Of a stretch of 64,000 bases of DNA, positions 49,427 through 58,698 are shown piece after piece. This stretch comes from Clostridia bacterium (GTDB lineage: Bacteria; Bacillota; Clostridia; Oscillospirales; Acutalibacteraceae): the NCBI GenBank assembly GCA_017517865.1, contig JAFWYB010000068.1, positions 105,007 through 169,006 of the forward strand. The letters are read 5' to 3'. How positions within the stretch are numbered: the stretch's first letter is position 1; every line of letters starts with the position of its first letter. The translations under genes were made by a program, and so were the position numbers. The notes beneath the pieces are model-generated. The model saw only the letters and a program-made list of their open reading frames with translations. It did no database searches and was not told where the DNA came from.

Positions 49427-52400
49427 ATGAAAAAGAATTTATTCAAGAAATCAATGTCAGTATTTTTGTCAGTACTCATGCTTATGTCATGCTGGGTGTT
49501 CTTCCCGGGTATGGTTACATTTGAAGCAGGTGCAGCAGCAACAGATACTACATACCGTGAGAATGCTGACCAATACGGCACACCCTACTGGACAGCCACC
49601 GATGATAACACACATTGGATGCTTTGGGGTGAGAGCAGAGATGCAAGTAAGGCTCATGTTTGGATCAAGGTTCCCAGAACTATTTATCTCGACAAGAGCG
49701 AAACTCTTCAGTCAGCAGGCTATAAAATTGAAGTCGAATGGTCATTGGGTGACGGTACAAGTTACCGTTGGGGCTTAGGTCCTGCTGCTTGGGGTTACGG
49801 TACCGGTATCAGTGGTCAGAGTGGTACAGAGCAGTTTACTATGACCAATATGTTCAAAGACTACAGCAGTAACTCAAGTATGAACGGCGAAAATGAATAT
49901 GGTGTTAACGGTTATAATGACGCTAACAAATACGATCTTAGAGTTCACGACAACTTTGATGGCAGTTCAGGATTTATCGTATATAAAAATACAGGTGGTA
50001 CATCCAATAGGACCAACTATATTTATCTTATTGGTACCCCTAATACTGTCGGTTCAGGCAGATACTCAACAACAGGTATCAATCCTTCACCGTTTAACTT
50101 CACACAGCAGTGGACCTGGAAGCAGAAATGGGAAACTAAGACCTCTCCTCTTAATGCTACAGGCAAGCCTAGTTCAGTTGAAGAACAGCTTTACGGTTAT
50201 AACGAAGTTTGGTGGGACATTGAAATATACGACAAGGCATCGCTTAAAACAGCTGTCGATTATGCTAACACTGTTTATGATAATAATATAAGCTACAGCT
50301 CATATGTTCTTAATAACGGTCTTGAAAATCTTAAACAGTTAGCAAACGAGGGTTATGATATGCTCGATGTCCGTGAACTGGCATCTCAGTCAGTTACGGA
50401 TAAGACTACTGCCATCAACAATGCAGCAAAAACAGTTCAGTTCCAGGCTAAGAATACCGATCTCATAAACAAGGTTGCAGAAGCCAGGGCTCTTCAGGCT
50501 AAGGCAGGTTATAACACATTATACACACAGGCTTCAAGACAGAATCTTCAGGCTGTAATTGAAAATGTAACAGCAAATACTCTCTATAAAGGTACTACTG
50601 TATATTCTACCGGTAACTATACAGACGCAGGTGCAAGAGCTGCAGCTGAACAGACTGAGATCAACAATCTTATAAACAGCATTACTGTAGCTTTGAACGG
50701 CCTTGTAAGAAGATACGATGTAGGTTACGATAACCTTTTCTCATTCACAGATTGGGCTCTCAATCCCGTTAAGGAAAATATGTCAAACGGTACAATCGAA
50801 ATTGATGCTGATAACGGCACAATTAAGATCACACACGACGGCAGTGCTGACGGCACCGACAACAACACAAGTCAGCAGCCCACATATTACAGAGCCAAGG
50901 TTGAAGGCAATACAGAATACGTTCTTACATGGAACACAGCAGGTTCAGGCAGAGGACAGATTCACGTATTCTACACCACGGGTGATCAGTATACATACAA
51001 TGTAAACAACAGCTATAACAGCGGTTCACATTGGTTTGTAAGTAACGGTGATCTTCCCTATTCAGAAGAAATGGGCAAGCACGAGGTTGCTTTCACAACT
51101 CTTCCCGAGACTGACGGTCTCGTATTCCGTTTCGGTACCTGTAATGCAGGTGACAGCATAACGTTCTCAAACATCAGACTCGTTAAGAAGTCAGATTACG
51201 ATGCTTATGCAAGTAAATATACAACTACCCGTGAAGCATTTGAAGTGGGCGATACAAAGGAGCTTACATACGCACCCACAAGAGAGGGCTATGTATTCGA
51301 CGGTTGGTACACAGCTGATGGTGTTAAGGTAACAAATATTTCAGGCTTTACGGCAAGTGACATTGTATATGCCCATTGGATTCAGAAGTTCGCAGTTACC
51401 TTCAAGAATCAGGACGGCACGGTTATCGAAACACAGTATGTTGCTCCCGGTGAAGCTGCCGTAGCTCCCTCGACTGCTGCTATTGATCCCGACGAAAATT
51501 ACGAATATGTTTTCGCCGGATGGGATAAGGACTTCTCAAATGTTACGTCAGACCTTGTAGTTACAGCTCAGTTTACTCAGCAGGCTCACAGCGGTATTAA
51601 ATATCAAAGAGTATCAGCTGCTACATGTACAACACCCGGTAAAATCACCAAGCTTTGTACCGCTTGTAACTATAAATGGAACAACGGTGAAGCTTTTGAA
51701 GATACAGCCGGTGAGTTTGCTCCCGCTCTCGGTCATACATATGATAGAGCTGAACCTACCGGAACTGTTGTTACAGATAAAGGCACTGAAACCGGTCACA
51801 CAGTAAAATGTAATGCATGTGATGCAACAACAACCAAAGCTCACGACTACAAACTTGACGCTAACCATCCCGCCTCAGACGCTACTTGTATAAAAGAAGG
51901 CGAAACATATTACAAGTGTGCTTGTCTTAGAGAAAAGACAGAAACAGGTTCAACAAACCCCAACAACCACGTTAACACAGAACTCAGAGATGTTGAAGCT
52001 GCTAAATGTGGCGTTGAAGGTTACACAGGTGACACATGGTGTAAGGATTGCGGCAGCAAGATCGCAACAGGTTCAGCAACACCTGCTCTCGAACACTCCT
52101 TCACAACCTATGTAGATCAGAACGATGCTACCTGCGATAAGGAAGGCACAGAAATCGCAACCTGTGACCGTGATGGCTGTAATGTAACCGATTCACGTTC
52201 AACAGGCAAAAAGCGTGAGCACTCCTTCACAAACTATGTAGATCAGGGCGATGCTACCTGCGATAAGGAAGGCACAGAAATCGCAACTTGTGATTATGAT
52301 GACTGTAATGCAACAGACTCACGCTCAACAGGCAAGAAGCGTGAACACAAGTTTGACGGTACCGTTAAGGATAACGGCAACGGCACACACTCATTCGAAT

Positions 52401-55400
52401 GTTCATACGACGACTGTGACGTTTACGGCGGTACAGTTGATTGCTCAAGCTGGAAAGAAAACGCAACAGAAGGCAAGTGCGAATGTGACGTCTGCGGTTA
52501 CACCAAGGTTCACACATGGAGCGATTGGTCACAGGCTGAGGGTAACACAGCTGATGCAGCAGGTAAGATGGTTCGTTCTTGCGGTGTCTGCGGTGCTGAA
52601 GAAACAACAGACTGTACTTATACATTCGTTAAGACACCCGCTACTTGCGAAGATGACGCTTATACTACATATACATGTACCGATGCAAACTGCGGTCACG
52701 GCTATGTTGTAGTAGAAATCGGTTCAGCAACCGGTCATAAATTCAACGGCGATTACAATTACGATTCACAGAATGATAAGCATCAGCAGAAGTGTGAAAA
52801 GTGTGATGCTTACGGTGTCGGCACAGCAAAGGATGCATGGGCAGATTGCTCATGGACTTACAATAATGCAGGCGAAGGTAAGCACACAGCTTCCTGCGTA
52901 TGCGGCAACAGCGAAGCTCAGGATTGCTCAGGCGGCACAGCTACATGTACAGCTAAGGCTGTATGTCAGTACTGCGGTGAGGCTTACGGCGAAAAGGCTC
53001 CTCACAGCTACACAGGCAATACATATTTTGACGGTGTAGAAAAAGCTAAGGATGCAACCTGTACAGCTCAGGCTGAATATTACACCTACTGCTCAGCTTG
53101 TAAGGCTTCAAGCAAGGGCACAGATAAGGAAGCAACCTTCGCATACGGCGACCTTCTTCCCCACACTTACACAGGCAACACTGAATACCTTTACAAGGCA
53201 ACAGACGCAGAGTGTGAAGTAAACGAAACATACTATGTATACTGTTCAGAATGTAAGGCTTCAAGTGAAGGCACAGCTGAAGAAGCTACCTTCGAAAAGG
53301 CTGACACAGCTCTTGAACACGTTTGGGTAGAGCCCCAGTACAACGGTGAAGAAACTCTCAAGCATACATTTACCTGTGAACGCGGTTGCGGCGAAACAAT
53401 GACTGCTAACTGCGCAGACTCAGCTATCGTATTTGGCTTTGAACCTGCTACTTGTACTTCACAGGGCTATGATATAGTACAGTGTTCTGCTTGTAACCAT
53501 ACCTGGAACATCAACTACACCGATGCTCTTGGTCACGATTACACCAAGAAAATTTATACAGGTGATTATCTTAAGGCTGCAGTTAACTGTGAGCACGCAA
53601 ACGAATATTGGTATGCATGTTCACGTTGCGGACGTAGCGCTGAAGATATTACAGATGACGAAGTTTATACAGGTGCAGGTTCTCTTTCATACTTCTCAGG
53701 TGAAGTAAGAAATCACGACTTCCAGAACAAGGTAGACGCTAAGTACCTTGCAGAACCTGCTACCTGCTTCGCAGCTGCTAAGTACTTCACATCCTGTAAG
53801 TATGAAGACTGCGGTAAGTCCTCAGAAGAGGTTTACGGCGTAGGTAAGGGCACAAAGTTCTCATCAGGCACAGCACTTGCTCACGACTGGACAGAGGTTG
53901 AAGCTGAAAAGTATCTTGCAACTCCCGCTGACTGCGCAAACGATGCAACATACTACTATGAATGTTCACTTTGTAAGAACTCCAGTAAGGATTACGGTGA
54001 CGGCGCAACATGGACTGATGTAGACTCCAAGTCAGGCCACAGCATGGCTTACACAGCTGCAAAGGCTGCAGACTGTTATGAAGCAGGTAACCTTGAATAC
54101 TGGTACTGCGATACTTGTAAGAAATATTACAAGGATGTTGACGGTACAGAAGCTTACCTCGGTCAGTCCGAAACAGTTGTCAAGAAGCGTGAACACGATT
54201 TAGCAACCTTCAGCTTCAAGGCTGCAACCTGTGAAGAAGACGGTCACCCCGCTTACGTTAAGTGTAAGTATGATGATTGTGATTACACAACTCTTCCTGC
54301 AGAGCTTCCTAACGGTTATAAAGCTACCGGCCATAACTTTACAGGTGCTTACTACTGCGATACAGCACATAACTACCATGCAAAGTATTGTGCAAATGAT
54401 AACTGTGATATGGTAACTCTTACTGATGCAGAAGGTAATCCTTATCAGGTTAAGACCTTCGGTATGGTTATTGACGGCAAGCAGGTTAAGTACAATGTTG
54501 AATATACTGGACTTGATTATGTAATCACCGGCGGCGAAGAGTGCTCATTCACTTACACAGAAAGCACAGTTGACGGTGTACACAGCCACGCTAACGCTTG
54601 CGTATGCGGCAACAGCACAGCAAAGACATATTCAGACGAAGAAACCTTCGTTGAAACTGTTGCTCCCACTTGTACAACAGACGGTTACGACAGCTATGCA
54701 TGTCCTGACTGTGGTACAACATGGACAAAGAACGTAGTTGCAAGAAACGGCCACACACCTGCTGCTAATCCCACGACAAACGGCGACGGCACACATTCAA
54801 TCTACTGTACAGTAGAAGGCTGTGGCTACAGAATCAGCACAGAAAAGTGCTCAGGCGGTACAGCAACATGCAGCAAGAAGGCTGAATGTACAGTCTGCGG
54901 TGCCGAATACGGCGATTTCGGTACACACGTATACGCTACAGAATGGGTATACCAGAATGACGCTGCTTGCGGCAAGAACGGCACAGAAAAGAACACATGT
55001 ACTGCATGTAACACAGAGCAGACCCGTGAAGCAGAGGGTACAGCTCTTAAGCACAGCTACTCAGATTATGTTTACGCACTTCCCGAAGGCGTAACAATTC
55101 CCGGTTTTGATACAGCTACACTTAAGGAACCCACTTGCGGCACAGAAGGTCGTGCAATCAGCTACTGTACACTTTGTAATGATGTTTACAAGACAAAGAT
55201 TGTTCCCGCAGATTCATCTGCACATGCTTGGGAAGTTGACGAAAACGGCGAACTCGTTTGGACAGCTGCAGGCGGCAACTGTGCAACAGGCGTTACAATG
55301 GTTAACAGATGTACAGTATGTGACAAGACTCAGAGCAAGGTTGTTAACGATGACCATCAGTGGGAAATCTATGCAAGAGTAGAAGCAAACTGTAAGGAAG

Positions 55401-55996
55401 ACGGCTACATCGTATTCAAGTGTGCAAACTGCTCATTCACACTCCTCTTCGATAAGAGCTATGAAGGCTATCCCGTATTCGAAGGCAAAGATTATGAGCT
55501 CACTGAAAAGCTCGGTCACAGCTGGGAGCGTGAAGGCTCAACAGACGAGCTTATCGTTGATAAGGAAGCAACCTGCGCAATCGAAGGCAGAGGCTATTAT
55601 GTATGTGCTGACTGTCAGGATAAGAGTGACAGCATTGCTATTGAAAAGCTCGAGCACAACCTCGTTGAGATCGCAGAGCAGAAGGTAACCTGCACAATTG
55701 ACGGCTATAAGGCATACGTAAAATGTATCGCTTGTTCTTATGACCAGCACCTTGACGAAGAATGGCTTGCAGTTGAAGGTAACTACACACCTGCAACAGG
55801 CCATATCGATGATAACAACGACGGCAAGTGTGACGGCTGTAAGAAGCAGATGGAAGGCGATGAAGCAGCAGATAACTGCAACTGTATCTGCCATAAGGAC
55901 GGATGGTTCTCACAGATTATCTACAAGATTCTCCGCTTCTTCTGGAAACTCTTCAAGATCGGTAAGTCATGTGATTGTGGTACAGTCCACTATTGA
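49427..55996 (+). CDS. Giant secreted cysteine-rich repeat protein
   Basis: 2189 aa. A signal peptide (about 1-38, ending AGAAA) is followed by an N-terminal beta region (about 40-270), a helical FIVAR-like stretch (about 270-426), a carbohydrate-binding-like beta-sandwich (about 434-594), two InlB/Listeria-Bacteroides type repeats (GYVFDGWYTADGVKV near 620; EYVFAGWDKDFSNV near 692) and a Cys-rich array from 721 to about 2110. The array holds about 22 units of form C-x(8-12)-C-x(2 or 4)-C followed by a GH or EH; in all about 107 cysteines. The C-terminus has DDNNDGKCDGC, then CNCICH, a basic hydrophobic helix (WFSQIIYKILRFFWKLFKIG) and CDCGTVHY. No LPXTG motif. Likely a surface adhesin or metal-binding scaffold; function unknown. 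Followed by its own terminator and two smaller relatives. Confidence 0.85.
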   Translation: MKKNLFKKSMSVFLSVLMLMSCWVFFPGMVTFEAGAAATDTTYRENADQYGTPYWTATDDNTHWMLWGESRDASKAHVWIKVPRTIYLDKSETLQSAGYKIEVEWSLGDGTSYRWGLGPAAWGYGTGISGQSGTEQFTMTNMFKDYSSNSSMNGENEYGVNGYNDANKYDLRVHDNFDGSSGFIVYKNTGGTSNRTNYIYLIGTPNTVGSGRYSTTGINPSPFNFTQQWTWKQKWETKTSPLNATGKPSSVEEQLYGYNEVWWDIEIYDKASLKTAVDYANTVYDNNISYSSYVLNNGLENLKQLANEGYDMLDVRELASQSVTDKTTAINNAAKTVQFQAKNTDLINKVAEARALQAKAGYNTLYTQASRQNLQAVIENVTANTLYKGTTVYSTGNYTDAGARAAAEQTEINNLINSITVALNGLVRRYDVGYDNLFSFTDWALNPVKENMSNGTIEIDADNGTIKITHDGSADGTDNNTSQQPTYYRAKVEGNTEYVLTWNTAGSGRGQIHVFYTTGDQYTYNVNNSYNSGSHWFVSNGDLPYSEEMGKHEVAFTTLPETDGLVFRFGTCNAGDSITFSNIRLVKKSDYDAYASKYTTTREAFEVGDTKELTYAPTREGYVFDGWYTADGVKVTNISGFTASDIVYAHWIQKFAVTFKNQDGTVIETQYVAPGEAAVAPSTAAIDPDENYEYVFAGWDKDFSNVTSDLVVTAQFTQQAHSGIKYQRVSAATCTTPGKITKLCTACNYKWNNGEAFEDTAGEFAPALGHTYDRAEPTGTVVTDKGTETGHTVKCNACDATTTKAHDYKLDANHPASDATCIKEGETYYKCACLREKTETGSTNPNNHVNTELRDVEAAKCGVEGYTGDTWCKDCGSKIATGSATPALEHSFTTYVDQNDATCDKEGTEIATCDRDGCNVTDSRSTGKKREHSFTNYVDQGDATCDKEGTEIATCDYDDCNATDSRSTGKKREHKFDGTVKDNGNGTHSFECSYDDCDVYGGTVDCSSWKENATEGKCECDVCGYTKVHTWSDWSQAEGNTADAAGKMVRSCGVCGAEETTDCTYTFVKTPATCEDDAYTTYTCTDANCGHGYVVVEIGSATGHKFNGDYNYDSQNDKHQQKCEKCDAYGVGTAKDAWADCSWTYNNAGEGKHTASCVCGNSEAQDCSGGTATCTAKAVCQYCGEAYGEKAPHSYTGNTYFDGVEKAKDATCTAQAEYYTYCSACKASSKGTDKEATFAYGDLLPHTYTGNTEYLYKATDAECEVNETYYVYCSECKASSEGTAEEATFEKADTALEHVWVEPQYNGEETLKHTFTCERGCGETMTANCADSAIVFGFEPATCTSQGYDIVQCSACNHTWNINYTDALGHDYTKKIYTGDYLKAAVNCEHANEYWYACSRCGRSAEDITDDEVYTGAGSLSYFSGEVRNHDFQNKVDAKYLAEPATCFAAAKYFTSCKYEDCGKSSEEVYGVGKGTKFSSGTALAHDWTEVEAEKYLATPADCANDATYYYECSLCKNSSKDYGDGATWTDVDSKSGHSMAYTAAKAADCYEAGNLEYWYCDTCKKYYKDVDGTEAYLGQSETVVKKREHDLATFSFKAATCEEDGHPAYVKCKYDDCDYTTLPAELPNGYKATGHNFTGAYYCDTAHNYHAKYCANDNCDMVTLTDAEGNPYQVKTFGMVIDGKQVKYNVEYTGLDYVITGGEECSFTYTESTVDGVHSHANACVCGNSTAKTYSDEETFVETVAPTCTTDGYDSYACPDCGTTWTKNVVARNGHTPAANPTTNGDGTHSIYCTVEGCGYRISTEKCSGGTATCSKKAECTVCGAEYGDFGTHVYATEWVYQNDAACGKNGTEKNTCTACNTEQTREAEGTALKHSYSDYVYALPEGVTIPGFDTATLKEPTCGTEGRAISYCTLCNDVYKTKIVPADSSAHAWEVDENGELVWTAAGGNCATGVTMVNRCTVCDKTQSKVVNDDHQWEIYARVEANCKEDGYIVFKCANCSFTLLFDKSYEGYPVFEGKDYELTEKLGHSWEREGSTDELIVDKEATCAIEGRGYYVCADCQDKSDSIAIEKLEHNLVEIAEQKVTCTIDGYKAYVKCIACSYDQHLDEEWLAVEGNYTPATGHIDDNNDGKCDGCKKQMEGDEAADNCNCICHKDGWFSQIIYKILRFFWKLFKIGKSCDCGTVHY
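52094..52345 (+). repeat. 126-bp tandem duplication inside the Cys-rich array
   Basis: Positions 52094-52219 and 52220-52345 are near-identical copies encoding 42 residues each (HSFT-YVDQ-DATCDKEGTEIA core). It shows how the array grows by in-frame unit duplication. Confidence 0.9.
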
Positions 55997-56014
55997 TTAA
56001 CCCCTTAAATAACG

Positions 56015-56045
56015 GAACTCCCTCATCTGAGGGAGTTCTTTTTTA
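56015..56045 (+). terminator. Rho-independent terminator of the giant gene
   Basis: GAACTCCCTC-atct-GAGGGAGTTC followed by TTTTTT. Confidence 0.93.
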
Positions 56046-56054
56046 TCCTTTTCA

Positions 56055-56083
56055 TTGACAAATGCTTTCTTAGATGATAAAAT
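56055..56083 (+). promoter_or_regulatory. Predicted sigma-A promoter of the two smaller Cys-rich genes
   Basis: TTGACA (56055-56060), 17-bp spacer, TAAAAT (56078-56083). Located between the terminator of the giant gene and the 281-aa gene. Confidence 0.78.
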
Positions 56084-56121
56084 AACATTGAATAAGTATA
56101 ATTTACGGGAGGTAAATGAAA

Positions 56122-56967
56122 ATGAAAAGAACATTAGCAATTATACTGTCCGTTGCAATGCTTTTTACAGCATTACCCTTTGCAGCTTTTGCTGAGCAGA
56201 ATGTATGTGCACATGAGGGTGAATACACCTGGCTCTATGAAAAGGTTGCTGATTGCACGGCAGCGGGCTGCACGATAAGCAGAAAAAAGCTCTGCAGTGA
56301 CTGCGGTGAGGTTTACGGTGAAACAGAAACAATTTCCGCACAGAAGGAGCATATTCTTACAGCTCTTCCTCTTTATGATGAAAACGGAAATATAATCGAG
56401 GCAAACTATATCCGTCCCACCTGCGAAGAAACGGGTATGCAGAAATATGCTTGTATGCTTTGTGAAACTACGGTTGAAAAGGTTATTCCTGCCAACGGTC
56501 ACAGCTACGGCGAAAGAGAAGTTTATGTCAAATGCTTTGATCCCGAAGACAGCAGTAATCAGGTAAGCAGAACGGAAAACGGCATATACAGAAGCTACTG
56601 CACTGAGCCCGGCTGTAAGGCATATCTTGAAGAAAGAATAAACGATCACGTTCATTTCGGATATGAAGCTAAAGAGGCAGACTGCTTCGGCCCCGGACAT
56701 ACAGCTTTTACATATTGCATTACCTGCGCCACAGAAACAGAGGTGTATGAGACACCTCAGCTTGAACATAAGGATGAGAATGATGACGGACGTTGCGATT
56801 TGTGCTTCTCGGAATACAGAGGAGACGGCGTGTTCTGTAGCTGCCTTTGCCATAGCGAAAAGCCCTTTATGCAGCTTCTTATGCCTCTTTTCAAGCTTAT
56901 CTGGCAGCTTCTCGGCATAGATAACTGTTACGGCACCTGTGATGCGGTGCATTACGTTAAGGAATAA
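56122..56967 (+). CDS. Secreted cysteine-rich protein with the shared C-terminal module (281 aa)
   Basis: Signal peptide about residues 1-25 (IILSVAMLFTALPFAAFAEQ). Three to four Cys-rich units follow, such as CSDCGEVYG, PTCEETGMQKYACMLC, and ADCFGPGHTAFTYCITC. The C-terminal module is DENDDGRCDLC, then CSCLCH, a hydrophobic helix (FMQLLMPLFKLIWQLLGI) and CYGTCDAVHYVKE, slightly different from its two neighbours (order of the last cysteines, four extra residues). The start at 56122 has GGGAGG nine bases upstream; the ATG at 56116 is too close. The stop is 15 bp before the next gene of the same family, so they form an operon. Function unknown; surface location likely. Confidence 0.8.
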   Translation: MKRTLAIILSVAMLFTALPFAAFAEQNVCAHEGEYTWLYEKVADCTAAGCTISRKKLCSDCGEVYGETETISAQKEHILTALPLYDENGNIIEANYIRPTCEETGMQKYACMLCETTVEKVIPANGHSYGEREVYVKCFDPEDSSNQVSRTENGIYRSYCTEPGCKAYLEERINDHVHFGYEAKEADCFGPGHTAFTYCITCATETEVYETPQLEHKDENDDGRCDLCFSEYRGDGVFCSCLCHSEKPFMQLLMPLFKLIWQLLGIDNCYGTCDAVHYVKE

Positions 56968-56982
56968 AACGGAGGTAGAATT

Positions 56983-58605
56983 ATGTTAACTGCAAAAAAA
57001 GTAATATCAATTATACTTTCCGTTGTAATGCTTATGTCAGCGGCATCTGTTGCTTTTTCCGCAAGTGCCGCAGATTGTAATCATAACATCGGACCGGAGT
57101 TTCCCGATTCAACTATGGTGATGTTCTCAGAAAAGCCCGGAACCTGCGTAAGTGTAGGCGTTCAGGCATACCGCTGTACTGAATGTACATATATCACAAA
57201 TGTTAAAACGACTATAGATCCCGACAACCATACAATGTCTGATTGGCAGACGGTTACAGAGCCTACCTGTAAGGATGAGGGCACAAGGACCCGTTTCTGT
57301 CTCAACTGCGGCGAAACGGAAGACGGTAAAATCCCCGCAAGTGATAATCATACCTTTATTGATGAAGCTGTTCTCAAATTCTGGTGGACAGCTGAAGACA
57401 AGAAAATCGGCTCTGTATATGAAGGCTGGGAAATAACTGCTCTTCCTACCTGCATTGACGAAGGTCAGGCTAAAACTGTATGCACCGTTTGCGGTGAGGC
57501 TGAAAAGACAGCAGTGCTTGATGCTCACAGCTACAGCTTTGTTGAAAACAAGGAGCTCAGCAAGGCTCCCGACTGTATAAGAACGGGTGAGTGTTATGTG
57601 TTCTGCGGTGAATGTAACGCTAACTACGTTCTCACAGTTCCCGTTGATGAAGATGCACACGTTATAAGATACAGAACTGTTACCGAAGCAACCTGTACCG
57701 CAGAGGGCACAGAACAGGCATACTGCATCTGGCACGATGACTATGAAGGTGAAATAAGACCCGTTGCAAAGAAAGAGCACTCGTTCACCGACTATAAGTT
57801 TGATAACAATGCAACCTGCACAAAGGACGGAACAAAAACCGCTAAGTGTGATTACTGTGACGAAACTGACACCGTTATTGCCGTCGGAACGAAGAGAGAG
57901 TGCGTTACAAAGTGGTTCTTTGCTGAAGGTGTAACCTGCAAAACCGGCGGCAAGGTTATCCTTGACTGTATTTATCCTGATTGCGAAAAGACCTACGGAG
58001 AAATAAAATATATCAATGCCGGACAGCATCCTAACCTTATAAGATATACGGTTGCTCCGACCTGCACACAGAACGGATATACCTATGAGGAATGTCCCGA
58101 CTGTAAACTGCTTACAACTGTTTCCGGCAGCGAAAAGCCCTCAACAGGTCATAAGTACAATTGGGTAACGGTAAAAGCCGGAAGCTGTATTGCTGACAAT
58201 GAAGGCAACCCTCAGCCTAAGGTTGAAAGCGGTGTGTGTGTTTATTGCGGCAACACAGAAACAAGAGAAACGGCTGTTGAACACGATTACTTCATTCTTG
58301 CTGACGAAATTGCCCCTTTATGTGACGAGGACGGCCGTACGGCACATCTTAAATGTTCTGCCTGCTTTGCAGAGGTTGAGTCTGAAGCTATTCCTGCTTT
58401 AGGTCACGAGGATTCAGACGGCAACGGCTGTTGCGACGTGTGCTACGAATGGTTCGTTGAAGGCCCCGACGGTAATGCTACAAGCTGCAGATGCCTTTGC
58501 CACAATACCAACGGACTTGCAGCCTTTTTCTATAAGATATACCTCTTCTTTATAAAGCTCTTCGGTGCGGCACAGCAATGCGATTGCGGAGCAATACATT
58601 ATTGA
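56983..58605 (+). CDS. Secreted cysteine-rich protein with the shared C-terminal module (540 aa)
   Basis: Signal peptide about residues 1-30 (ISIILSVVMLMSAASVAFSA). About seven Cys-rich units follow, for example EPTCKDEGTRTRFCLNC, PTCIDEGQAKTVCTVC, ATCTKDGTKTAKCDYC, and PTCTQNGYTYEECPDC, each followed by a spaced His. The C-terminal module is DSDGNGCCDVC, then CRCLCH, a hydrophobic helix (AAFFYKIYLFFIKLFGA) and CDCGAIHY. GGAGG precedes the ATG. Second gene of the operon with the 281-aa protein; a terminator follows. The repeated unit is the same as in the giant protein at 49427, indicating common descent. Function unknown. Confidence 0.8.
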   Translation: MLTAKKVISIILSVVMLMSAASVAFSASAADCNHNIGPEFPDSTMVMFSEKPGTCVSVGVQAYRCTECTYITNVKTTIDPDNHTMSDWQTVTEPTCKDEGTRTRFCLNCGETEDGKIPASDNHTFIDEAVLKFWWTAEDKKIGSVYEGWEITALPTCIDEGQAKTVCTVCGEAEKTAVLDAHSYSFVENKELSKAPDCIRTGECYVFCGECNANYVLTVPVDEDAHVIRYRTVTEATCTAEGTEQAYCIWHDDYEGEIRPVAKKEHSFTDYKFDNNATCTKDGTKTAKCDYCDETDTVIAVGTKRECVTKWFFAEGVTCKTGGKVILDCIYPDCEKTYGEIKYINAGQHPNLIRYTVAPTCTQNGYTYEECPDCKLLTTVSGSEKPSTGHKYNWVTVKAGSCIADNEGNPQPKVESGVCVYCGNTETRETAVEHDYFILADEIAPLCDEDGRTAHLKCSACFAEVESEAIPALGHEDSDGNGCCDVCYEWFVEGPDGNATSCRCLCHNTNGLAAFFYKIYLFFIKLFGAAQQCDCGAIHY

Positions 58606-58618
58606 TTTACTGAACTGT

Positions 58619-58652
58619 AAACAGGCAGAGAGAGCTCTCTGCCTGTTTTTTA
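58619..58652 (+). terminator. Rho-independent terminator of the Cys-rich operon
   Basis: AACAGGCAGAGA-gagc-TCTCTGCCTGTT followed by TTTT. Confidence 0.93.
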
Positions 58653-58698
58653 TATATCATTATACTAAAAAAATATATCGGATTTTGGTGTATAACTA

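What the first reader, a model, noticed from the sequence alone, without database searches (positions are those of the whole stretch)
55797..58605. A shared C-terminal module, D-x-x-x-DG-x-CD-x-C / CxCxCH / helix / Cys-rich-xxHY, in three tandem secreted proteins
Seen directly: the three consecutive proteins end with the same order of elements: (1) an acidic loop (DDNNDGKCDGC, DENDDGRCDLC, DSDGNGCCDVC), (2) CNCICH, CSCLCH or CRCLCH, (3) a 17-20 residue basic/aromatic hydrophobic helix, (4) CDCGTVHY, CDAVHYVKE or CDCGAIHY at the very C-terminus. The rest of each protein varies greatly in length. A conserved extreme C-terminus on otherwise divergent secreted repeat proteins is what sorting or anchoring signals look like (LPXTG, PEP-CTERM, type IX CTD), but none of those match. 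Two Cys/His clusters flanking an amphipathic helix could form a metal- or disulfide-closed hairpin that attaches the protein to the membrane or wall. This could be an undescribed anchoring domain of gut Clostridia.
Basis: partly seen in the sequence, partly recalled or inferred. Interest (0 to 1): 0.87.

Follow-up and report, generated by a model that had tools for sequence, protein, structure and literature searches.

The report
New C-terminal tail on surface proteins
A short tail of about 39 amino acids, two cysteine/histidine clusters around a sticky positively charged helix, closes many otherwise unrelated secreted proteins of uncultured gut Clostridia, and most likely holds them on the cell surface in a way not yet described.

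Summary
The shared unit is a ~39-residue tail, C-x-[C/H]-x-C-H – 24-25 residues with an amphipathic cationic helix – C-x-C-G-x-x-H-[Y/W]. The acidic DxxxDGxCDxC loop is a separable spacer (before 37 of 118 tails). The window's genome has 12 canonical tails. All 34 genomes held for its genus match, but only 5 of 100 drawn from the family. None of 118 distinct tails is internal. 68 of 70 tail ORFs have a signal peptide, against 133 of 435 other ORFs in the fetched loci. Passengers are typical surface cargo: BspA-type LRRs, InlB- and Ig-like repeats, C-type lectin, phosphoesterases, lipases. They show no other recognisable anchor. Neither Pfam nor NCBIfam covers the tail. Position 3 is Cys (61) or His (57) only, as expected of a metal ligand; the helix is amphipathic, not transmembrane. 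Best reading: a metal-clasped amphipathic helix that retains proteins at the membrane surface. Retention, metal and membrane contact are inferred.

The parts
49427..55996 (+). ORF 1, 2189 aa, signal peptide, List_Bact repeat, about 18 C..C-x-x-C..H repeats, acidic loop, C-terminal module
56116..56967 (+). ORF 2, 283 aa, signal peptide, cysteine repeats, acidic loop, module plus three residues VKE
56983..58605 (+). ORF 3, 540 aa, signal peptide, cysteine repeats, acidic loop, module; starts 15 bases after ORF 2's stop, so probably one transcript with ORF 2 (inferred)
55877..55993 (+). C-terminal module of ORF 1, CNCICH - helix - CDCGTVHY
56836..56964 (+). C-terminal module of ORF 2, CSCLCH - helix - CYGTCDAVHYVKE; the most divergent of the three at the C-terminal cluster
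58486..58602 (+). C-terminal module of ORF 3, CRCLCH - helix - CDCGAIHY
55808..55840 (+). acidic loop DDNNDGKCDGC; separable spacer, not part of the module
56773..56805 (+). acidic loop DENDDGRCDLC; separable spacer
58411..58443 (+). acidic loop DSDGNGCCDVC; separable spacer
56014..56049 (+). terminator-like hairpin with T run after ORF 1
   Evidence: pattern only
56055..56083 (+). promoter-like site before ORF 2 (11 of 12 matches, TG before the second hexamer)
   Evidence: pattern only; 7 such sites in the stretch against 5.2 in shuffles
58619..58658 (+). terminator-like hairpin with T run after ORF 3
   Evidence: pattern only

Best explanation
The tail is a self-contained surface-retention module. 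The protein leaves the cell by Sec, and the last ~39 residues then keep it at the cell surface. The stretch between the clusters forms an amphipathic helix: Phe/Ile/Leu on one face, Lys/Arg on the other, Trp/Tyr on the boundary. It lies flat in the outer leaflet of the anionic cytoplasmic membrane, or against anionic wall polymer. The two flanking Cys/His clusters, C-x-[C/H]-x-C-H before and C-x-C-G-x-x-H after it, bind metal (most likely zinc) and so cap or clasp the helix. Shown here: strict C-terminal position, export signal, unrelated passengers, lack of another recognisable anchor, amphipathic pattern, Cys/His exchange at position 3. Inferred: helix as such, metal binding, that both clusters share one site, membrane as the target, and retention itself.
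For: Position: 0 of 118 distinct tails internal. Export: 68 of 70 tail ORFs with a signal peptide against 133 of 435 other ORFs in the fetched loci, Fisher p 2e-28. Passengers: in 71 carriers scanned, LRR_5 in 35, Flg_new_2 in 7, Big_2, Metallophos and A2M in 3 each, Lectin_C and Lipase_3 in 2 each, papain, esterase and GH123 domains in single members; one is related, far below the curated cut-off, to the model Nt5e_LPXTG of an LPXTG-anchored ecto-5'-nucleotidase. No other anchor in the 71 carriers (an overlapping, not identical set): 0 internal TM-like segments, 0 LPXTG, 1 lipobox-like. Metal: C5 and H6 in 118 of 118, C32, C34 and H38 in 117, C1 in 115, position 3 C in 61 and H in 57 and nothing else, and no extra Cys in 49 of 57 H-type tails. 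Helix: hydrophobic moment median 2.6 sd above shuffles; best 19-residue hydropathy median 1.04, only 3 of 116 above 1.6, so not a usual TM; net charge of the linker +2 to +6 in 107 of 116. Two clusters may touch: acid at position 33 accompanies H at position 3 (47 of 57) but less often C (16 of 61); among 34 nearest pairs, 22 go that way, 2 the other, 10 do not differ. The same bacterial family has a second C-terminal tail with one Cys/His knuckle plus a like helix, and some secreted proteins end in a similar helix without Cys, as if the helix were the working part.
Against: No localisation, metal or membrane-binding data. The 118 tails were collected with a profile of the same kind, so invariance is partly selected. 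The 3/33 covariation is not shown free of shared descent: the tree of 37 columns has 1 supported independent pair; columns 30 (14 to 2) and 2 (9 to 1) shift charge the same way in the pair test, and W16 and A37 also follow position 3. The last residues are conserved up to the C-terminus (Y/W or free His end), more than a mere membrane helix would need, which leaves room for a specific receptor. The window's genome also has a sortase/LPXTG pilus-like cluster, so the tail is not a simple replacement for sortase. One window protein has a lipobox-like string.
Confidence: 0.45

Rival explanations
1. Docking module: the tail binds a cognate receptor on the cell surface, or itself, as dockerins bind cohesins, and so loads many proteins on one scaffold.
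For: Many-to-one logic (1-23 matches per genome); the conserved polar ends and the free C-terminus look like a recognition surface; enzymes and LRR adhesins mixed among carriers.
Against: No receptor candidate is at hand (none was searched for beyond sortases); the helix is cationic and aromatic with a fully hydrophobic face, more membrane-like; no dockerin model matches in the Pfam scans of single proteins.
Confidence: 0.23
2. Sorting signal: a transpeptidase or protease (sortase-like, rhombosortase-like) cuts in or before the tail and attaches the protein to wall or lipid.
For: Same genomic habit as LPXTG, PEP-CTERM and GlyGly-CTERM tails: extreme C-terminus, signal peptide, unrelated passengers, several per genome, patchy spread (PMC3237569, abstract and outline). 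A long sortase frame is found in 33 of 34 genus genomes, and in 12 genomes it is the only sortase match. A class B sortase is known to anchor a streptococcal protein whose signal has no hydrophobic domain (PMC4974636, passages read), so lack of a TM helix does not by itself exclude a sortase; I raised this rival from 0.12 to 0.15 for that reason and lowered two others slightly.
Against: The usual motif / TM helix / basic end is not met. The long sortase has relatives in 93 of 100 family genomes, with or without the tail. No whole-genome profile could be run to look for another partner.
Confidence: 0.15
3. Disulfide-closed amphipathic hairpin, saposin- or bacteriocin-like, with no metal.
For: Extracellular, and four cysteines (C1, C5, C32, C34) are nearly invariant, enough for two bridges.
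Against: Position 3 is Cys or His at nearly equal frequency, mostly without a compensating cysteine, and two histidines are (nearly) invariant; the hosts are presumably gut anaerobes (inferred from the sample names).
Confidence: 0.12
4. Folding, export or metal-storage tag without any role in attachment.
For: Nothing here shows attachment; the window's carriers are themselves cysteine-rich repeat proteins (107, 21 and 40 Cys).
Against: About half of the scanned carriers (35 of 71) are LRR proteins and others are enzymes, which have no evident need of a metal store.
Confidence: 0.05

Closest known systems
LPXTG / sortase A sorting signal
   Same: C-terminal, on signal-peptide proteins with unrelated passengers; one carrier matches, far below cut-off, the NCBIfam model Nt5e_LPXTG of a sortase-anchored ecto-nucleotidase
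   Different: no LPXTG (0 of 71), no usual TM helix, no basic end after a TM; conserved Cys/His instead
AbpA / SrtB signal of oral streptococci
   Same: C-terminal cell-wall signal without the usual hydrophobic domain, used by a class B sortase (PMC4974636, passages)
   Different: a short KAGKALPKTSAVK motif; no Cys/His clusters, no amphipathic helix, one protein
GlyGly-CTERM / rhombosortase and PEP-CTERM / exosortase
   Same: C-terminal homology domain on otherwise unrelated proteins, up to thirteen per genome for GlyGly-CTERM, sporadic spread (PMC3237569, abstract and outline)
   Different: no TM helix; no partner enzyme found; no NCBIfam match
Type IX secretion C-terminal domain
   Same: C-terminal, shared by unrelated secreted proteins (recalled)
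   Different: that domain is a longer beta-rich domain of Bacteroidota (recalled); no model matched
Dockerin
   Same: acidic DxNxDG-like loop upstream in some carriers, many-to-one habit
   Different: the loop is not part of the module (37 of 118), single not paired; no match to a dockerin model in the single scans
Phenol-soluble modulin alpha-3 and similar membrane-active amphipathic peptides
   Same: cationic amphipathic helix; the only hit of the PDB sequence search, E 1.3, which is chance level
   Different: no homology claimed; free peptide, no Cys/His clusters
Second tail in the same bacterial family, CxxCGxxHxGFFGKIxxFFHxIxxFFxxLF
   Same: C-terminal; export signal in the two carriers whose start was seen; Pro/Thr/Asp/Glu-rich linkers or the same acidic loop before several of them; one Cys/His knuckle with a helix-like stretch
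   Different: knuckle only before the helix, conserved His inside the helix; found in 4 of 100 family genomes, three of which had no canonical tail

Membership tests
LPXTG cell-wall sorting signal | LPXTG-like motif near the C-terminus | tested here: not met
   0 of 71 carriers
LPXTG cell-wall sorting signal | hydrophobic transmembrane helix followed by basic end | tested here: not met
   best 19-residue hydropathy above 1.6 in 3 of 116; end is CxCGxxHY
LPXTG cell-wall sorting signal | sortase in the genome | tested here: met
   34 of 34 genus genomes have a sortase match, but so do most family genomes without the tail (93 of 100 in all), and the window's genome has ordinary LPXTG proteins for it
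GlyGly-CTERM / PEP-CTERM type signal | match to the curated NCBIfam tail models | tested here: not met
   no match on the window proteins or two isolated tails
GlyGly-CTERM / PEP-CTERM type signal | extreme C-terminus, signal peptide, unrelated passengers | tested here: met
GlyGly-CTERM / PEP-CTERM type signal | co-distributed processing enzyme | tested here: inconclusive
   only sortases were tried; no whole-genome profile comparison possible
Dockerin | paired calcium-loop repeats, Pfam dockerin match | tested here: not met
   no match for the 3 window proteins or 10 further proteins (8 of them canonical carriers); in the scan of 71 only the first 25 of 35 families were shown; single loop, absent before most tails
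Any described Pfam or NCBIfam domain | model match over the tail | tested here: not met
   3 window proteins and two isolated tails with E limit 10
Zinc-binding module | conserved Cys/His ligands with Cys/His exchange | tested here: met
   position 3 C 61, H 57 of 118
Zinc-binding module | bound metal | not testable with these tools

The most novel reading that the evidence does not exclude
An enzyme-free way for Gram-positive-type bacteria to display proteins: a genetically portable ~39-residue tail whose amphipathic helix is clasped by one zinc site made from both flanking clusters and inserts into the outer membrane leaflet after export. With the second tail (one knuckle plus helix) and the helix-only tails it would form a new class of C-terminal surface anchors in gut Clostridia.
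Probability: 0.3. Interest if true: 0.85.

Novelty: new variant of a known kind. Interest (0 to 1): 0.66.

Why it matters
It marks, by sequence alone, which secreted proteins of uncultured gut Clostridia probably stay on the cell: LRR adhesins, lipases, phosphoesterases, proteases. The carriers looked at would otherwise show no recognisable anchor. It gives a ~39-residue tag that can be tested outside the native host, and it makes the question of how these bacteria hold surface proteins besides sortase directly testable.

Tried and rejected
Acidic loop as part of the module: rejected (37 of 118). Known domain: none. A dedicated sortase: a long sortase frame (example L177:4119-6002; I call it class-B-like from recall, not from a call) looked promising because 33 of 34 genus genomes have such a frame (in G110 only frames of 286 and 294 aa were seen), but 93 of 100 family genomes have relatives of it. 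Transmembrane tail: rejected by hydropathy. CXXCH haem site: the spacing is CxCH, not CXXCH (sequence). Viral spread: the IMG/VR scan found none, but it works by short peptide patterns and can miss, as one phage record with two diverged tails shows; plasmids none. Class-wide spread: only the window's own genome among 393 for either tail, and 3 of 395 in the order; these runs scored at most 19-20 candidates per genome, so misses are possible (with the canonical profile the window's genome still gave its 12 copies and the remnant). The genome-contig scan also works by two peptide patterns and reaches close relatives only. Covariation 3/33 on a tree: inconclusive. In print: paper searches. One search matched 2,279 papers and showed 15; the others showed all they matched (1, 0, 3, 8 and 11). 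Nothing in the titles and abstract starts listed describes such a tail; the exact strings CSCNCHK, CDHLCHK, KLFGINK, CECGAAHY, CXCXCH, CACGVAHY occur in no held paper. Of papers, I saw abstract and outline of PMC3237569 and passages of PMC4974636; the rest as listings only. That both tails looked familiar before the searches was recall, and no recalled sequence was used as a query.

Rows dropped before counts: the 118 tails come from L001-L167 and the window; hits weaker than 1e-5 or covering less than model positions 2-36 (including the four CC-D variant sequences and the remnants L152 and L167) and frames open at the 3' end were left out; two of the 118 could not be parsed for the linker statistics; L140, counted in the 118, is an orphan 57-aa frame. 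The signal-peptide test is a home-made heuristic. In one search it chose the best of several starts; the 68 of 70 and 133 of 435 come from the stricter version (complete, non-overlapping frames of at least 170 aa in the window and the loci from L083 on, including some fetched for sortases). One search counts 71 of 77 closed frames: five under 150 aa from the chosen start and L155, without a signal peptide, were dropped. The Pfam and NCBIfam tallies used 71 of 73 listed carriers (ORF 1 scanned separately, L099 left out as a near copy); this set includes L155, L148 cut at 120 aa, and L165 with the CC-D variant, and only the first 25 families of each tally were shown.


Full report
What is there. 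The three tandem genes at 49427-58605 encode secreted cysteine-repeat proteins of 2189, 283 and 540 residues. Their last 39-43 residues align with invariant Cys and His positions (coordinates). ORF 1 has its own terminator-like hairpin; ORFs 2 and 3 are 15 bases apart, with a promoter-like site before and a terminator-like site after the pair (pattern matches only). No Pfam or NCBIfam model covers the tails, either in the whole proteins or in two isolated tails with an E limit of 10.

The module is not local. A profile of the three tails finds further proteins on other contigs of the same genome. Reading these showed that the shared part begins at C-x-[C/H]-x-C-H: a metallophosphoesterase, an alpha/beta-hydrolase, a class 3 lipase and an LRR protein carry the tail without the acidic loop (tails, domains). 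With a 12-row profile the genome has 12 canonical tails at E <= 2.3e-13, two weaker CC-D variants and one remnant with a stop (the profile was built from the 12).

Spread. All 34 genomes held for the genus match, with 1-23 matches each at E <= 0.001. In the family 5 of 100 genomes match, two of them of this genus. In an order-wide draw 3 of 395 match, all of this family, and in a class-wide draw only the window's own genome among 393. The last two runs scored at most 19 candidates per genome. A peptide-pattern scan of the genome-contig collection (84,980 species) gave 75 confirmed loci, all from MAGs titled Clostridia, Clostridiales, Oscillospiraceae, Ruminococcaceae or Ruminococcus. 43 titles name a goat, sheep, cattle, buffalo, deer, horse or rabbit sample; 32 name no source. 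So the tail belongs to one lineage of uncultured gut Clostridia with patchy presence in sister genera, as far as these draws reach.

Position and export. From L001-L167 and the window, 118 distinct full tails were collected. None is internal; 105 end exactly at the model's end and 13 have 1-10 further residues. With a strict home-made test, 68 of 70 tail ORFs have a signal peptide against 133 of 435 other ORFs of the fetched loci (Fisher p 2e-28). The two exceptions are L117, which has one from an upstream GTG start, and a 210-aa frame (L155). Of 71 carriers with a signal peptide by the laxer test, none has another TM-like segment or LPXTG, and one, ORF 1 of the window, has a lipobox-like string.

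Passengers. Among 71 carriers scanned one by one (E <= 0.001), 35 have BspA-type LRRs, 7 InlB B-like repeats, 3 each Big_2, metallophosphoesterase and A2M domains, 2 each C-type lectin and class 3 lipase, and single members papain, esterase, GH123 and CopC domains (first 25 of 35 families shown). One metallophosphoesterase carrier matches the NCBIfam model of an LPXTG-anchored ecto-5'-nucleotidase at 69.8 bits against a cut-off of 1050, alongside other nucleotidase models. A metallophosphoesterase with the tail (L161) has a homologue without it (L104, 32% identity over 323 residues). Linkers before the tail are rich in Pro, Thr, Asp and Glu in 17 of 118.

Chemistry. Over 118 tails, C5 and H6 are invariant, C32, C34 and H38 occur in 117, C1 and G35 in 115. 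Position 3 is Cys in 61 and His in 57 and never anything else. On the best, poorly supported tree it changed at least 17 times. His-type tails have no extra cysteine in 49 of 57 cases. This is what a metal ligand does and a disulfide cysteine does not. Acid at position 33, inside the C-terminal cluster, goes with His at position 3 (47 of 57) more than with Cys (16 of 61); in 34 near pairs it goes that way in 22, the other way in 2 and does not differ in 10. That is as if a site charge were kept constant, which would put both clusters at one metal site. Against this: only one pair lies on supported branches, columns 30 and 2 shift charge in the same direction (14 to 2 and 9 to 1), and W16 and A37 follow position 3 too, so shared descent is not excluded.

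Helix. The linker of mostly 24-25 residues has a hydrophobic moment 2.6 sd (median) above its own shuffles, net charge +2 to +6 in 107 of 116, and hydropathy too low for a usual TM segment (median 1.04; 3 of 116 above 1.6). Consensus residues F11, F14, I15, I18, F21, F22, L25, F26 fall on one face, K17, R20, K24, G/K27 on the other, W16 and W23 on the boundary (helical-wheel reading). The only hit of a PDB sequence search is a phenol-soluble modulin at E 1.3, chance level.

Related tails. A phosphodiesterase gene (PF01663) directly upstream of the tail-bearing hydrolase in L163 ends in CAYCGVTHKGFIESFRAFFHSLKLFFNRSFGC. Relatives of this second tail occur in three other genera (7, 3 and 2 matches), which showed no canonical tail; 11 of the 13 loci fetched show the full pattern at a C-terminus (alignment A6). 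The acidic loop (L191, L192) or acidic/Pro/Thr-rich linkers precede several of them. Some secreted proteins in the fetched loci end in a similar helix with no Cys (L122, L145, L053).

Partner enzyme. 34 of 34 genus genomes have a sortase match. In 33 of them one match lies in a long frame (489-725 aa), and in 12 genomes that is the only sortase match. But 93 of 100 family genomes have relatives of it at E <= 1e-10. The window's genome also has an LPXTG pilus-like cluster with two further sortases. A class B sortase can use a signal without a hydrophobic domain (PMC4974636, passages), so a sortase is not excluded. No specific partner was found; whole-genome profiling was not possible.

Mechanism and its limits. 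I take the tail as a surface-retention module that works by a metal-clasped amphipathic helix. Position, export, cargo, amphipathic pattern and Cys/His exchange are shown. Metal, common site, membrane contact and retention are inferred. A receptor-binding tail remains the strongest rival.

Print. Six paper searches listed nothing on such a tail, and the exact consensus strings occur in no held paper. Only open-licence PMC papers are held, and most were seen as listings, so absence is not proof.

Noticed in passing
L163:1544-2599 (window's genome, C5) and L183-L193: A second C-terminal tail, CxxCGxxHxGFFGKIxxFFHxIxxFFxxLF, on proteins of at least 4 genera of the family; no Pfam match over the tail of L163's protein and only a chance-level NCBIfam match to the isolated tail
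   Followed up: partly
L165 (C26), L166 (C36), L046, L053/L054: Variant tail CxCxCH - helix - CC-x-D or similar in place of CxCGxxHY, with a few residues after it; four sequences only
   Followed up: no
L122 (527 aa), L145 (1080 aa), L053 (276 aa): Secreted proteins that end in a cationic aromatic amphipathic helix (e.g. FWQKLINFFKNLFAKLFNF) without any cysteine cluster
   Followed up: no
L167:3588-3692, L152:6000-6096, L140:6001-6114: Three orphan or degenerate tails with little or no gene body in three genomes share the same 17-base string encoding GFIRK where the other tails have W, Y or F at that Arg position almost throughout; perhaps relics of deleted genes, perhaps a moved cassette
   Followed up: partly
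PV036458.1 (Oscillospirales phage IMGVR 15609780, human faeces), 64252-70725 and 71605-75312: Two large proteins with cysteine repeats and identical canonical tails flank a small gene that reads like a TetR-type regulator (my reading; annotated hypothetical) at the right end of the phage record; the one read from its start begins with a signal-peptide-like stretch. Either phage-carried surface cargo or flanking host DNA; it places the tail in a human gut sample
   Followed up: partly
window 49427-58605: Repeats of the form C-x(6-16)-C-x-x-C...H, about 18, 3 and 7 in ORFs 1-3, with no Pfam domain over them; three Cys and one His per unit suggests a zinc-binding extracellular repeat
   Followed up: no
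L177:4119-6002, L179:4587-6494 and 31 further genus genomes: Long sortase frame with an extended, low-complexity N-terminal region, between a cinA-like and a SpoIID-like gene (names recalled) in the two genomes read, with relatives in most of the family
   Followed up: partly
L178:54-8124 (window's genome, C5): Pilus-like cluster: two proteins with LPETG ends, a third with a similar C-terminal end, and two further sortases
   Followed up: no
L162:8134-11364 and neighbours (C47): Another tandem set: two canonical-tail genes follow a 1270-aa frame, related to LRR carriers by BLAST, that ends in a different tail (CKYCGREVHEENGIAQYICVIIMFVKLVVSFVKMLQGAAA)
   Followed up: partly
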